Part shown: one piece after another, positions 10,852 to 14,888 of the stretch
Layout: each line of letters opens with the position of its first letter
Numbering within the stretch: the first letter of the stretch is position 1
Source: Sulfobacillus thermosulfidooxidans
GTDB lineage: Bacteria; Bacillota; Sulfobacillia; Sulfobacillales; Sulfobacillaceae
Length of the DNA stretch: 64,000 bases
NCBI RefSeq assembly: GCF_001280565.1
Contig: NZ_LGRO01000001.1
Coordinates: forward strand, 992,001-1,056,000
Direction: 5' to 3'
Notes under the pieces: model-generated
What the model saw: the letters and a program-made list of their open reading frames with translations, nothing else
The model's database searches: none
What the model was told of the DNA's origin: nothing
Program-made: the position numbers and the translations under genes

Positions 10852-11044
10852 CGTAAACTCCTTGGCCATGCTATTACAAATGATGCTACAGTCCATCGCG
10901 AGATACGGATGCGGATTACGAAATAACTAGATAATATTTAACTATGATATAAATTATACAGTAACTTAAGGTGACTGACTACGTTACCTACAGGTCTTAA
11001 TGAATAACGAGGTCTTGTCACTAGTAGACGCAAGGAGTTTATTC
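10852..11044. promoter_or_regulatory. Divergent intergenic region, likely LysR operator and promoters
   Basis: AT-rich stretch between the LysR start and the glycosyltransferase start. Around 10928-10962 the sequence (AATATTTAACTATGATATAA then ATTATACAG) contains several T-N11-A style half-sites with partial dyad symmetry, as LysR regulators use. No exact operator can be assigned from sequence alone. Confidence 0.35.
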
Positions 11045-11947
11045 ATGGCACGATTCATACGTTTTCATCTAGGTTCTCACCCTACCAGTCTTGATCAAGC
11101 AGTTGTGGAGCGTCTTATGCCGATAATGAAAACCTGGCGGTTAACGATACCGAAACGTTCCTGGATTCCTTCTCGTCCCTTTACCATTGCGGTGGGAGAA
11201 CATGCCCGGGTGGGGGATCTCATCGTGCATCCCTTAGGAGACATTCATACTGAGTGGCCAAATCCTGTTGGATTGGTGTGGGGCCATGAGACGTCCGCAA
11301 CCAAAAATCTTTTACGATTACCAGCGTATGCTCCCAAAGAAATGGGACTGGATGAGAATGTCTTCGCTATTACCCGGGAACTGCGGTTATCGGAAAGACC
11401 ACGAATTTTATATTTAGGGTCTTTTCAGGACGGAGCGGGATTGACGGCATTCCTGGGGGCTATGAAGGATCTTTTGACCGTGCAAGGGGAGGCGATTTTG
11501 ATTGGAGGAATAGCTGTCCGTGACCGATTAGCACCCGTTGTGGCTCGTCTAGGTTTGGCCCAACAGGTCATTTTTGCTCCTCCGTTATCGCCTGGTCAAT
11601 TATCTGGCCTGTATCATTCGGCTGACGTATTGGTGTATCCTGATCGTGATCCTGGTCAATTATACCAGTTGATAGACGTCTATGCGCACGGTCTTCCCGT
11701 AGTATTACGGGATACCCCTGAAACACGAAAGATTTGGGGATATCCCGCGCTATTAGTGTCGAGCGATGATGGTAACCAATGGGGTGAAGCGATTCAAGAA
11801 GTCATTGATAATACGCGTTTACGAGAAGTGCTGATCCGGCGGGGAATGGAATTTGCCCAGATGCATGAAACAGAGATAGTCATCACGGGATGGCGAAGTA
11901 CTATCGAAAAAATTTCGGGACAAAGCGTTGTGCTCGAATCCAATTAG
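11045..11947 (+). CDS. GT4-like glycosyltransferase
   Basis: 300 residues from ATG 11045 with AAGGAG seven bases upstream; an earlier in-frame ATG at 11000 has no ribosome site. The C-terminal half is the nucleotide-sugar-binding Rossmann domain of GT-B enzymes (RILYLGSFQDGAGLTAFLGA, LADVLVYPD-type segment, and LIDVYAHGLPVVL in place of the usual EAMAxGxPV). The N-terminal acceptor domain is short for GT4 (about 120 residues), and the classic EX7E is modified, so activity is uncertain. It probably belongs with the polysaccharide genes downstream. The next gene starts seven bases after its stop. Confidence 0.7.
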   Translation: MARFIRFHLGSHPTSLDQAVVERLMPIMKTWRLTIPKRSWIPSRPFTIAVGEHARVGDLIVHPLGDIHTEWPNPVGLVWGHETSATKNLLRLPAYAPKEMGLDENVFAITRELRLSERPRILYLGSFQDGAGLTAFLGAMKDLLTVQGEAILIGGIAVRDRLAPVVARLGLAQQVIFAPPLSPGQLSGLYHSADVLVYPDRDPGQLYQLIDVYAHGLPVVLRDTPETRKIWGYPALLVSSDDGNQWGEAIQEVIDNTRLREVLIRRGMEFAQMHETEIVITGWRSTIEKISGQSVVLESN

Positions 11948-11954
11948 GAGTGAC

Positions 11955-12551
11955 ATGATGTCGACCCTACCATGGCTGGATAATTTGATGCAACCTGTTC
12001 ATATTATGCAATATGGTCAAGGGAATCCTGCATTTATCCAACAATTTGCGGACAATGAATGGATTTTTTGGGAAATGGTGGACAAGCTTCCCGATATTGT
12101 GTGGCCATGGTTTCCCCAACATTTGCCGGTCTACGGCATTGCCCAAGAGGATTCCGCGGCACATATCTGGTTTGTAGGTGAACCTATTGGTCAGGAAGAA
12201 AGCAGTTGGCGAGATTTAGTCTTAGCCGTGGGCCGTGGGCAAAAACTATTGACGCCGATGACCGAAAACATCGTCGATAGCATTGGAGAAATTGTCCACG
12301 TTGCCGTGTTCACCACGCCAAGTTGACCTAAATGTGCTCAGGCAGTTCGCCTGATTGGTGCCATGAGTTTACGGAATCCACGCATTAACCTATTCGCAAT
12401 TGATTTGGATAAGGCGAAAGATCTCTTAAATATTTTGTCGATCCAGACAGTACCAACCTTTGCTTTTAATGAGAGTCTCATGTCCTTGACCGCTAATGAA
12501 TGGATTTTGGCACAAAAAATTTGGCAAATAGCTACGAAGCACGAGACATGA
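11955..12551 (+). CDS. AhpF-N-like thioredoxin-fold protein with in-frame TGA (candidate selenoprotein)
   Basis: Two open frames in the same phase, 11955-12323 and 12327-12551, are split by a single TGA at 12324-12326. Read through, the product is 198 residues with two tandem thioredoxin folds, as in the N-terminal domain of AhpF or a protein disulfide oxidoreductase. WFVGEPIGQE and DLVLAV match the first fold's end; VHVAVFTTPS-TGA-PKC is the start of the second. AhpF has CHNC at this point, so the TGA sits exactly where the first catalytic cysteine belongs, giving UxxC. After it come LNPRIKH-like SLRNPRINLFAID and the cis-proline IQTVPTF. A six-bp hairpin starts 11 bases after the TGA. Start ATG 11955 has AGGAGTGA upstream. 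A Cys-to-stop mutation is the alternative. Confidence 0.7.
12324..12354 (+). promoter_or_regulatory. Candidate bacterial SECIS element after in-frame UGA
   Basis: Directly after TGA (12324-12326), TCAGGC (12338-12343) pairs perfectly with GCCTGA (12349-12354), leaving the 5-base loop AGTTC. The loop begins 17 bases after the UGA and has G as its second base followed by U, the features recalled for bacterial SelB-binding hairpins (small apical loop with G near the start, short fixed distance from UGA). Whether SelB binds is inference. Confidence 0.6.
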
Positions 12552-12693
12552 ATAATCAAATATGATTTAACAACTGATGATAAATGTTTAATTGTGAAAT
12601 ACGTCGATTAATTTTTCTTGAAGAGTGGTCGTCAAATGACATTATTAAGAGTAAAATAGGGGTCAGAAATATGCAGGGTAGGAGATGTTTTCG

Positions 12694-13473
12694 ATGGTTC
12701 ATGTCACGGCCATACAACAAGTGTTGGCCGTTATTTCGGGAGTGATTGTGGGTTTCAGTTTAGGATTAATTGGCGGCGGCGGGTCTATTATGGCCGTGCC
12801 TTTGTTGCTATATTTCGTCGGCATTCATGATCCTCATTTAGTTATTGGGACCACTGCGTTGGCAGTAGCGGTGAATAGTTACTTGAATCTGATTCCTCAC
12901 TGGCGAAGCGGTAACGTCAAATGGGGGGCGGCTATTGGATTTGCTATTCCGGGTGCCATTGGAGCCTTTATCGGATCAACAATCGGCAAGATGGTAAACG
13001 GCAAAGATTTGTTGTTTTTGTTTGCCATACTCATGATTGTTGTAGCAATATTGATGCTAAAACCCAAGAAAGGTGAAAGTACGACCACCAGTTTTCATTG
13101 GACACATAAAATGTTATTGCGGGTGATTCCAGCGGGATTGCTTGTCGGATTTGTGTCGGGCTTCTTTGGCATTGGTGGGGGTTTCTTAATTGTTCCAGGA
13201 CTCATCATGTCAACCGGAATGCCCATGATTTATGCAATTGGAAGTTCATTATTTTCTGTAGGCACATTCGGGCTAACGACAGCTATCAATTACGCGTTAT
13301 CCGGTTTGGTATTATGGCTTGTGGTTGTTGAATATGTTGGTGGAGGTATAATCGGTGGTGTTTTAGGCACGCGCCTAGCCAACCAACTCAGTAAACAAAA
13401 GCGATTATTGAACTTTGTTTTTTCGGGGGTTGTGATTATCGTCGGTATTTATATGCTGACATTGAACGCCTAA
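12694..13473 (+). CDS. TauE/SafE-family anion exporter
   Basis: A 259-residue integral membrane protein with about eight hydrophobic segments. The two repeats of the TauE/SafE (DUF81) family are visible: LIGGGGSIMAVPLLLYF near residue 25 and FFGIGGGFLIVPGLI near residue 155. Members export sulfite, sulfoacetate or similar anions; the substrate here is unknown, but sulfur oxyanions would suit a sulfur-oxidising acidophile. I use ATG 12694, nine bases behind GGAG; ATG 12685 directly abuts that site. A strong hairpin follows the gene. Confidence 0.85.
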   Translation: MVHVTAIQQVLAVISGVIVGFSLGLIGGGGSIMAVPLLLYFVGIHDPHLVIGTTALAVAVNSYLNLIPHWRSGNVKWGAAIGFAIPGAIGAFIGSTIGKMVNGKDLLFLFAILMIVVAILMLKPKKGESTTTSFHWTHKMLLRVIPAGLLVGFVSGFFGIGGGFLIVPGLIMSTGMPMIYAIGSSLFSVGTFGLTTAINYALSGLVLWLVVVEYVGGGIIGGVLGTRLANQLSKQKRLLNFVFSGVVIIVGIYMLTLNA

Positions 13474-13592: not shown

Positions 13593-14888
13593 GTGGCGCT
13601 CGTGATTTGTGCTGTAATCGGGATATTGTTGGGAATGAGTGTATGGATTTATCCCCGGTTATTTATCATGAACCTCTTAGTCACGGCGGTTGGAGTCGAA
13701 ATCATTCACCACTGGTATGCAGGCATTGGTCAATATTTTCCGTGGATCGCCGTCTTTCTCGCGGGAATTCTTCAAGCGGGTCCTAGTGCATGGAAAAAAT
13801 GGTGGCAGTTTATTTTGCATAATAAAGAATGGATGGCGGTTTACGGGCTGTACTTTATTAGCATTGGAATTTCTACACTAATGGGCATTCACGTGTCTAC
13901 CTCACTACGTTATGCCTTAGGCGTTCCTGCGGTCTTATTCATTGCCGTTGTGATCGTTCCCTGGTCTGTTGAAAAGCGCCTTATAGCCTTAAAAAATCTA
14001 TTGCAAGTCATTGCATTGATGGGCGTGGTTCTTACAGTAACGGCTGGGATTGCTGCGATAGCTGATCATTTGGGATTTCCGGTTCCAGTAGGTCATCATA
14101 TTTTGTTAGCATGGCAGTGGCCCTTTGCCAACAAGAATACATTTGGGATGCTTGTAACTTTTGCTCTACCGGCCTCGGTCTATCTCGCGCTTGACTATCG
14201 TGAAGATGGTATTATCCGCATTTTTTGGTTCATGGCCAGTATGCTCTTATTTATCGGCGTAGCCCTCAGTTATTCCCGGTCATCATGGATTGCCAGTATG
14301 ATTGGCGTCATGATGTTTGTAACGTTTTATTATGGCAAACGTGGCGTCTTGGCGATGTTTGGCATCGGTATTGTGCTTCTCGCAGGACTCATTGCGAAAA
14401 CCGGATTACACAAATGGCAACTGCTATGGCATAAAGGCCTTAACGGACGCATTGTTTTGTGGAAAGCGGGACTTGACGCAATGCATCATCATTGGGTCTG
14501 GGGGGTGGGGCCTGGTAACTCGCCACTTGCATTGAAACCATTTGTGCCGGCCATTTACGCGGGCTTGACACCCTCCGATTCAATTTTGCGATCAGCTGTG
14601 GAATTGGGATTGGTGGGCTTAGGCCTTTGGCTTCTTCTTGTGGGGATCGCGATGATTGGGCTACTCATGCGACGACCCTGGCACAACTGGGACGATAACG
14701 CATTGTTTTCAATCATGTTAGCTAGTTTAGCTCAGCAAGTAGTCGAATCTCTGTTTGTTGGCGGTGTGTCATTTGGGGATTTCTTTTTCACGGTATTCTT
14801 AGGACTGGCATGGTATAGAATTTGGGTGGTCCCTAAGAATCGTTCTCTTCGTTCCAACAGACTGTCTCGGCGTGCGCTGTTAGGTTAG
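13593..14888 (+). CDS. O-antigen ligase / Wzy-like membrane polymerase
   Basis: 431 residues with about 11 membrane segments from a GTG start behind GAGGTGACA. The family signature LSYSRSSWIA lies near residue 225, just before the large external loop, which contains GRIVLWKAGLDAMHHHWVWG and GPGNSPLAL, as in Wzy_C/WaaL proteins. Such proteins polymerise or ligate undecaprenyl-linked glycan on the outer face of the membrane. A polyprenyl sugar transferase lies convergent downstream and other glycosyltransferases are nearby, supporting a role in capsule or exopolysaccharide. It cannot be told from sequence whether it acts as ligase or polymerase. Confidence 0.85.
   Translation: MALVICAVIGILLGMSVWIYPRLFIMNLLVTAVGVEIIHHWYAGIGQYFPWIAVFLAGILQAGPSAWKKWWQFILHNKEWMAVYGLYFISIGISTLMGIHVSTSLRYALGVPAVLFIAVVIVPWSVEKRLIALKNLLQVIALMGVVLTVTAGIAAIADHLGFPVPVGHHILLAWQWPFANKNTFGMLVTFALPASVYLALDYREDGIIRIFWFMASMLLFIGVALSYSRSSWIASMIGVMMFVTFYYGKRGVLAMFGIGIVLLAGLIAKTGLHKWQLLWHKGLNGRIVLWKAGLDAMHHHWVWGVGPGNSPLALKPFVPAIYAGLTPSDSILRSAVELGLVGLGLWLLLVGIAMIGLLMRRPWHNWDDNALFSIMLASLAQQVVESLFVGGVSFGDFFFTVFLGLAWYRIWVVPKNRSLRSNRLSRRALLG

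What the first reader, a model, noticed from the sequence alone, without database searches (positions are those of the whole stretch)
12338..12354. SECIS-like stem-loop at the correct distance after the UGA
TCAGGC/GCCTGA closes a five-base AGTTC loop 17 bases after the UGA. The G-U in the loop and the short spacing agree with the bacterial SECIS model, where SelB reads a small apical loop with a G near its start. The hairpin also has to encode protein (CAQAVRLIG), so its perfect pairing is not trivially expected.
Basis: partly seen in the sequence, partly recalled or inferred. Interest (0 to 1): 0.7.

Follow-up and report, generated by a model that had tools for sequence, protein, structure and literature searches.

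The report
SECIS hairpin of a selenium redox protein
The small hairpin is very probably the signal that makes this acid-loving bacterium read a UGA 'stop' as selenocysteine in a thioredoxin-like redox protein; the principle is well known, but this gene is a divergent, easily mis-annotated example with unusually clear evolutionary evidence.

Summary
The hairpin is real: UCAGGC-AGUUC-GCCUGA, window 12338-12354, loop 17 nt after an in-frame UGA (12324-12326), -8.6 kcal/mol. Read through, the gene (11955-12551) gives a 198-aa two-thioredoxin-unit protein with a UxxC active site, modelled at pLDDT 94.9 and matching protein disulfide oxidoreductases and the AhpF N-terminal domain. The genome has SelA, SelB, a UCA tRNA-Sec and a SelD. 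All six stem pairs form in 81 of 95 distinct TGA sites but in 2 of 40 distinct Cys sites. TGA sites pair far better than synonymous-codon shuffles (5.80 against 4.06 of 6; 0 of 1000 reach it), and five of six pairs show double compensatory changes. On the tree, Sec/Cys switches track loss of the stem. The two genomes of the order whose listed homologues are all Cys lack SelA and SelB. I conclude it is a bacterial SECIS. Not a new kind: Sec forms of this family (TIGR02187) are in print. This copy is divergent, 65 bits against a cut-off of 185, one of four Sec copies found in the genome.

The parts
11955..12551 (+). selenoprotein gene, PDO/AhpF-N-terminal-like; 198 aa from ATG 11955 (or 197 from ATG 11958, 7 nt after AGGAG 11946-11950), final stop TGA 12549-12551
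   Evidence: read-through translation; homology; model pLDDT 94.9
12324..12326 (+). in-frame UGA read as selenocysteine, residue 124, first position of the UxxC active site
   Evidence: aligned with TGA, TGC or TGT in homologues
12333..12335 (+). codon TGT of resolving Cys127, the only Cys in the protein
   Evidence: translation; invariant column
12338..12354 (+). bSECIS hairpin: stem 12338-12343 with 12349-12354, loop 12344-12348 with G at 12345
   Evidence: covariation; covariance model hit 37.5 bits (the window's own sequence was among the 30 the model was built from)
11000..11947 (+). upstream gene, glycosyltransferase group 1 domain, ends 7 nt before ATG 11955; found beside the gene in relatives
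   Evidence: Pfam PF13692/PF00534; matched in 16 of 45 loci searched, own locus included and some genomes present twice
12685..13473 (+). downstream gene, TauE/SafE permease, syntenic in relatives
   Evidence: PF01925 171.7 bits; matched in 15 of 45 loci searched, own locus included and some genomes present twice

Best explanation
The hairpin is a bacterial SECIS element. In the mRNA it lies 11 nt behind the UGA, where SelB carrying GTP and Sec-tRNA(Sec) binds it and delivers selenocysteine to the ribosome when the UGA reaches the A site (step inferred from established knowledge of SelB). The product is a stand-alone protein of two thioredoxin units, the first without cysteine, the second with Sec124-Pro-Lys-Cys127; it probably works as a selenol/thiol-disulfide oxidoreductase (inferred). 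Shown here: hairpin, TGA/Cys alternation at the catalytic position, stem conservation and covariation tied to TGA, presence of SelA, SelB, tRNA-Sec and SelD, predicted fold. Not shown: Sec in the protein, SelB binding, substrate.
For: Homologous codon is TGA, TGC or TGT at one position. All six pairs in 81 of 95 distinct TGA sites and 2 of 40 Cys sites; TGA mean 5.80 pairs against 4.06 for synonymous-codon shuffles, 0 of 1000 reaching it. Five of six pairs have double changes; 31 cells with double changes against 7.8 in shuffles; slid registers 22-39% paired against 94.4% (30 of the 95 TGA sequences). Twelve independent Sec/Cys pairs on well-supported branches: the full stem goes with Sec in 9.6 and against in 0.0 on average, median p 0.002. 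SelB 361 bits, tRNA-Sec with TCA anticodon, SelA 557 bits, SelD 362 bits. In the order, 40 of 42 genomes have a TGA copy and 38 of those 40 have SelB over the cut-off; the two whose listed copies are all Cys (G010, G019) lack SelB and SelA over cut-off. Read-through model pLDDT 94.9, best PDB matches PDO and AhpF N-terminal domain.
Against: No expression or selenium data. 14 of 95 TGA sites miss at least one pair; L029 forms only three, L034, L093 and L132 four. G006 has TGA copies and SelA but neither SelB nor tRNA-Sec over cut-off, and G030 has TGA copies without SelB, SelA or tRNA-Sec over cut-off; G006 is a draft in about 120 contigs and G030 is 63% complete. Many Cys rows are distant paralogues, so the raw 81/95 against 2/40 contrast is partly phylogeny; with at least five pairs as threshold the independent-pair test is weaker (median p 0.031). 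No Rfam family matched.
Confidence: 0.96

Rival explanations
1. The TGA is an ordinary stop: the gene is a decaying pseudogene or encodes a truncated 123-aa protein, and the hairpin is chance.
For: About 0.6% of TGAs in the window have an equally good hairpin downstream; standard ORF listing ends at 12326.
Against: The TGA is kept across genera with open frame on both sides and only TGC/TGT as alternatives at the aligned second-unit active sites; the C-terminal part is conserved and folds confidently; the stem covaries.
Confidence: 0.02
2. The stem pairs only because the conserved peptide (Q/R)AVRL happens to be encoded by complementary codons.
For: Synonymous shuffles of the TGA sites already give 4.06 of 6 pairs, and Cys homologues pair 3.90 of 6.
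Against: TGA sites pair 5.80 of 6 and no shuffle of 1000 reaches that; subfamilies with other peptides (QMVHL, HVVNM, HAVRM, ETVRL) keep the pairing with other letters.
Confidence: 0.01
3. UGA is read as another amino acid (for example Trp) or by leaky read-through without SelB.
For: The sequence alone cannot tell the residue.
Against: Homologues replace TGA by Cys codons only at this catalytic position; the genome has a TCA tRNA-Sec, SelA, SelB and SelD; the two genomes whose listed copies are all Cys lack SelA and SelB over cut-off.
Confidence: 0.01

Closest known systems
Bacterial SECIS consensus (bSECIS; constraints as printed in PMC13188914, passages read)
   Same: apical loop 5 nt (3-9), stem 6 bp (4-16), G in the first two loop bases followed by U, spacing 17 nt (16-37), -8.6 kcal/mol (limit -7.5)
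   Different: loop AGUUC lacks the N1-N2 pair that most loops have; the E. coli fdhF element was not compared here
Sec-containing 'homolog of AhpF N-terminal domain (Grx-like)', TIGR02187 (PDO_seleno_TRX), listed in PMC1794560, PMC9312934 and PMC13188914 (passages read)
   Same: UxxC in the second thioredoxin unit, homology (E 5.4e-18), SECIS behind the UGA
   Different: scores 65.1 bits against a cut-off of 185; motif UPKCAQ; no cysteine in the first unit; its clade is on one side of a starred branch in the tree
Protein disulfide oxidoreductase of Pyrococcus furiosus (1a8l) and P. horikoshii (1j08)
   Same: two-unit fold, active site at the equivalent place in unit 2
   Different: the archaeal protein has another cysteine pair in unit 1 (seen in the alignment); here unit 1 has none, and Sec replaces the first Cys of unit 2
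AhpF N-terminal domain (1zyn, Salmonella)
   Same: low rmsd (2.6 A, TM 0.78/0.79); one active site, in the second unit (recalled for AhpF)
   Different: stand-alone, not fused to a flavin reductase domain; Sec

Membership tests
bacterial SECIS (bSECIS model) | apical loop 3-9 nt and upper stem 4-16 bp | tested here: met
   5-nt loop, 6 bp
bacterial SECIS (bSECIS model) | G in the first two loop positions | tested here: met
   G at 12345; G at this place in 95 of 95 TGA sites, partly because a Val (GTN) codon begins there
bacterial SECIS (bSECIS model) | N1-G-(G/U)-N-N2 with N1 pairing N2 (usual, not obligatory) | tested here: not met
   A and C at the loop ends do not pair; the source says 'mostly'
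bacterial SECIS (bSECIS model) | 16-37 nt from UGA to loop | tested here: met
   17 nt
bacterial SECIS (bSECIS model) | minimum free energy at or below -7.5 kcal/mol | tested here: met
   -8.6 hairpin, -11.3 for 40 nt
bacterial SECIS (bSECIS model) | bound by the cognate SelB and needed for Sec insertion | not testable with these tools
   needs experiment; SelB gene present
selenoprotein gene of a Sec-decoding bacterium | SelA, SelB, tRNA-Sec, SelD in the genome | tested here: met
TIGR02187 PDO_seleno_TRX equivalog | score over curated cut-off 185 | tested here: not met
   65.1 bits; therefore filed as a divergent relative, not as the equivalog
TIGR02187 PDO_seleno_TRX equivalog | C/UxxC in the second thioredoxin unit | tested here: met
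   U124-P-K-C127
protein disulfide oxidoreductase with two redox sites (recalled definition) | CxxC in both units | tested here: not met
   no Cys before residue 124

The most novel reading that the evidence does not exclude
The clade around the window's gene (28 rows in the tree, 23 Sec) is a distinct, so far unnamed selenoprotein subfamily of the Sulfobacillus order: a single-site PDO whose only redox residues in the window copy are one Sec and one Cys, kept in the genus beside a TauE/SafE exporter and a glycosyltransferase, possibly working on sulfur compounds outside ordinary disulfide exchange, and overlooked because it falls below the annotation cut-off and is cut at the UGA.
Probability: 0.4. 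Interest if true: 0.45.

Novelty: new member of a known kind. Interest (0 to 1): 0.3.

Why it matters
It shows that a raw-sequence reading of a SECIS was right, and gives a family in which one RNA element can be followed through many Sec/Cys switches: 14 changes on the tree and 30 distinct pairs of stem arms among the TGA sites. That is good material for learning which bases a Sulfobacillus-type SelB needs. It also points to genes that standard annotation is likely to truncate.

Tried and rejected
Rfam at gathering and at lax threshold gave no SECIS hit; short bSECIS hairpins may not be covered. tblastn of the protein against plasmids and phages found nothing. A single-sequence scan of genome contigs found no relative; the alignment scan found 15. 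Folding the 55-nt region against shuffles was uninformative. The covariance model R1 found the four Sec-PDO genes of the own genome and nothing convincing beyond (next hit E 0.34); a look at seven further hits gave no clear additional selenoprotein. One search aligned three stretches, one out of register because my L017 coordinates were off; not used. Rejected: ordinary stop, codon-composition artefact, Trp-UGA.

Full report
Observation. The sequence TCAGGC AGTTC GCCTGA stands at window 12338-12354, in frame behind TGA 12324-12326. Eleven bases separate UGA and stem, seventeen UGA and loop. The hairpin alone folds at -8.6 kcal/mol and 40 nt behind the UGA at -11.3; a 55-nt stretch is not more stable than shuffles. 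Of 2285 TGAs in the window on both strands, 14 have as good a hairpin at an allowed distance, so a single hairpin proves little; but only this TGA combines a stem of at least 5 WC pairs with 60 open codons on each side.

Gene. With TGA read through, 11955-12551 encodes 198 aa whose only redox residues are U124 and C127. Pfam gives weak thioredoxin and glutaredoxin matches below the cut-offs, NCBIfam TIGR02187 'PDO_seleno_TRX' at 5.4e-18 but 65.1 bits against a cut-off of 185, PDB sequences Pyrococcus PDO and AhpF. AlphaFold2 on the window protein plus 15 relatives gives mean pLDDT 94.9, pTM 0.91, and Foldseek puts PDOs and AhpF N-terminal domains on top, AhpF 1zyn with the lowest rmsd of the first five (2.6 A). 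The upstream glycosyltransferase-like gene and the downstream TauE/SafE permease keep their place in relatives (matched in 16 and 15 of the 45 loci searched, own locus included and some genomes present twice), also in genus g11, where the motif has changed to UGHCGHAVRM and the stem to CATGC/GCATG.

Machinery. The own genome has SelB (361 bits, over cut-off), tRNA-Sec with anticodon TCA (64.5 bits), SelA (557 bits) and SelD (362 bits, with one TGA inside). Named relatives include Sulfobacillus thermotolerans Kr1, S. benefaciens and S. harzensis. Two papers report other Sec proteins in Sulfobacillus: formate dehydrogenase (PMC4378227, passage) and a peroxiredoxin PrxU (PMC7409299, passage).

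Relatives. 48 of 61 genomes have a match to the protein, all 42 genomes of the order one to TIGR02187. From these I fetched loci (not every listed place, and one search did not list all) and located the active-site codon in 179 places: 116 TGA, 37 TGC, 14 TGT, 12 others. By pattern I set aside 17 distinct sites of first-unit matches (the non-Cys codons among them) and 17 of a small neighbouring glutaredoxin-like gene, leaving 95 distinct TGA and 40 distinct Cys sites.

Stem test. All six pairs form in 81 of 95 TGA sites and 2 of 40 Cys sites; at least five in 91 and 14; the inner five in 88 and 8. Holding each peptide and drawing synonymous codons by usage gives 4.06 pairs on average for TGA sites against 5.80 observed (0 of 1000 draws reach it), and 3.53 against 3.90 for Cys sites (8 of 1000): a small excess that fits remnants of lost SECIS elements. 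Slid registers lose the pairing. On 30 chosen TGA sequences five of six pairs show double changes, 31 such cells against 7.8 in shuffles, covariation score 0.620 against 0.260. Examples: CAGATG..CATCTG, CCATGT..ACATGG, GAGAC..GTCTC. Against: in the window's own clade 13 of 23 distinct TGA sites form all six pairs and 21 at least five; L029 forms three. The loop G is the first base of a Val codon in 93 of 95 TGA sites, so protein conservation alone could hold it.

Phylogeny. On a tree of 144 second-unit sequences (115 columns, many forks weak) the Sec/Cys label needs 14 changes. In 12 independent Sec/Cys pairs on starred branches the full stem follows Sec in 9.6 on average and opposes in 0.0; median p 0.002; with five pairs as threshold 6.2 to 0.1, p 0.031. 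In the order, 40 of 42 genomes have a TGA copy; 38 of the 40 have SelB over cut-off; the other two TGA genomes are G006 (draft; SelA 539 bits) and G030 (63% complete). The two genomes without a listed TGA copy, G010 and G019, lack SelB over cut-off, and SelA is absent or far below its cut-off (20 bits).

Own genome. A covariance model of the element finds four places at E 1e-7 to 6e-6, exactly the four Sec-PDO genes (the window's own and those of other copies were in the training set), then nothing under E 0.3. A fifth PDO copy has TGC (L047).

Known or new. The Sec form of this family is in print: 'homolog of AhpF N-terminal domain', TIGR02187, UxxC, in Carboxydothermus and Symbiobacterium (PMC1794560, passages; PMC13188914, passages; PMC9312934, passage). 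Searches for Sulfobacillus with selenocysteine (4 papers) or selenoprotein (2 papers) listed no paper whose title or abstract start concerns this gene; I read passages of two of these six and nothing of the other four. So: a new, divergent member of a known kind, with a SECIS that meets the published constraints except the optional loop pair.

Mechanism. Inferred from known SelB biology: the hairpin recruits SelB and Sec-tRNA and the UGA is decoded as Sec; the protein then uses a selenolate at the place of the first active-site Cys. The substrate is unknown; the TauE/SafE neighbour is a hint, not evidence, of a sulfur-related task.

Noticed in passing
L046 (also L051, L052, L056, L059, L066, L067, L071-L073, L078, L093): Beside a Sec-PDO gene lies a small glutaredoxin-like gene with its own TGA at the active site (for example TTPTU-VHC-RNAKRFLQER in the own genome); its hairpin does not lie in the PDO register (0 of 17 sites of this class, Cys copies included, form all six pairs). 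Cys versions occur in L081, L083, L086, L089, L090.
   Followed up: partly
L204: The own genome's SelD match has one TGA inside, so SelD is probably a selenoprotein too.
   Followed up: no
L047, L050: A Cys copy (CRWCPRAVRL) nested among Sec copies in the tree, with a decayed stem (4 of 6 pairs): a likely Sec-to-Cys change.
   Followed up: partly
L061, L100-L103, L105, L107, L110-L114, L117: Cys-only homologues that have Ser in place of the second active-site Cys (such as CPHSP): monothiol variants of the family.
   Followed up: no
window 13593-14888: O-antigen ligase-like (Wzy_C) gene downstream, with a glycosyltransferase upstream of the selenoprotein gene; why they flank a redox gene is unclear.
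   Followed up: no
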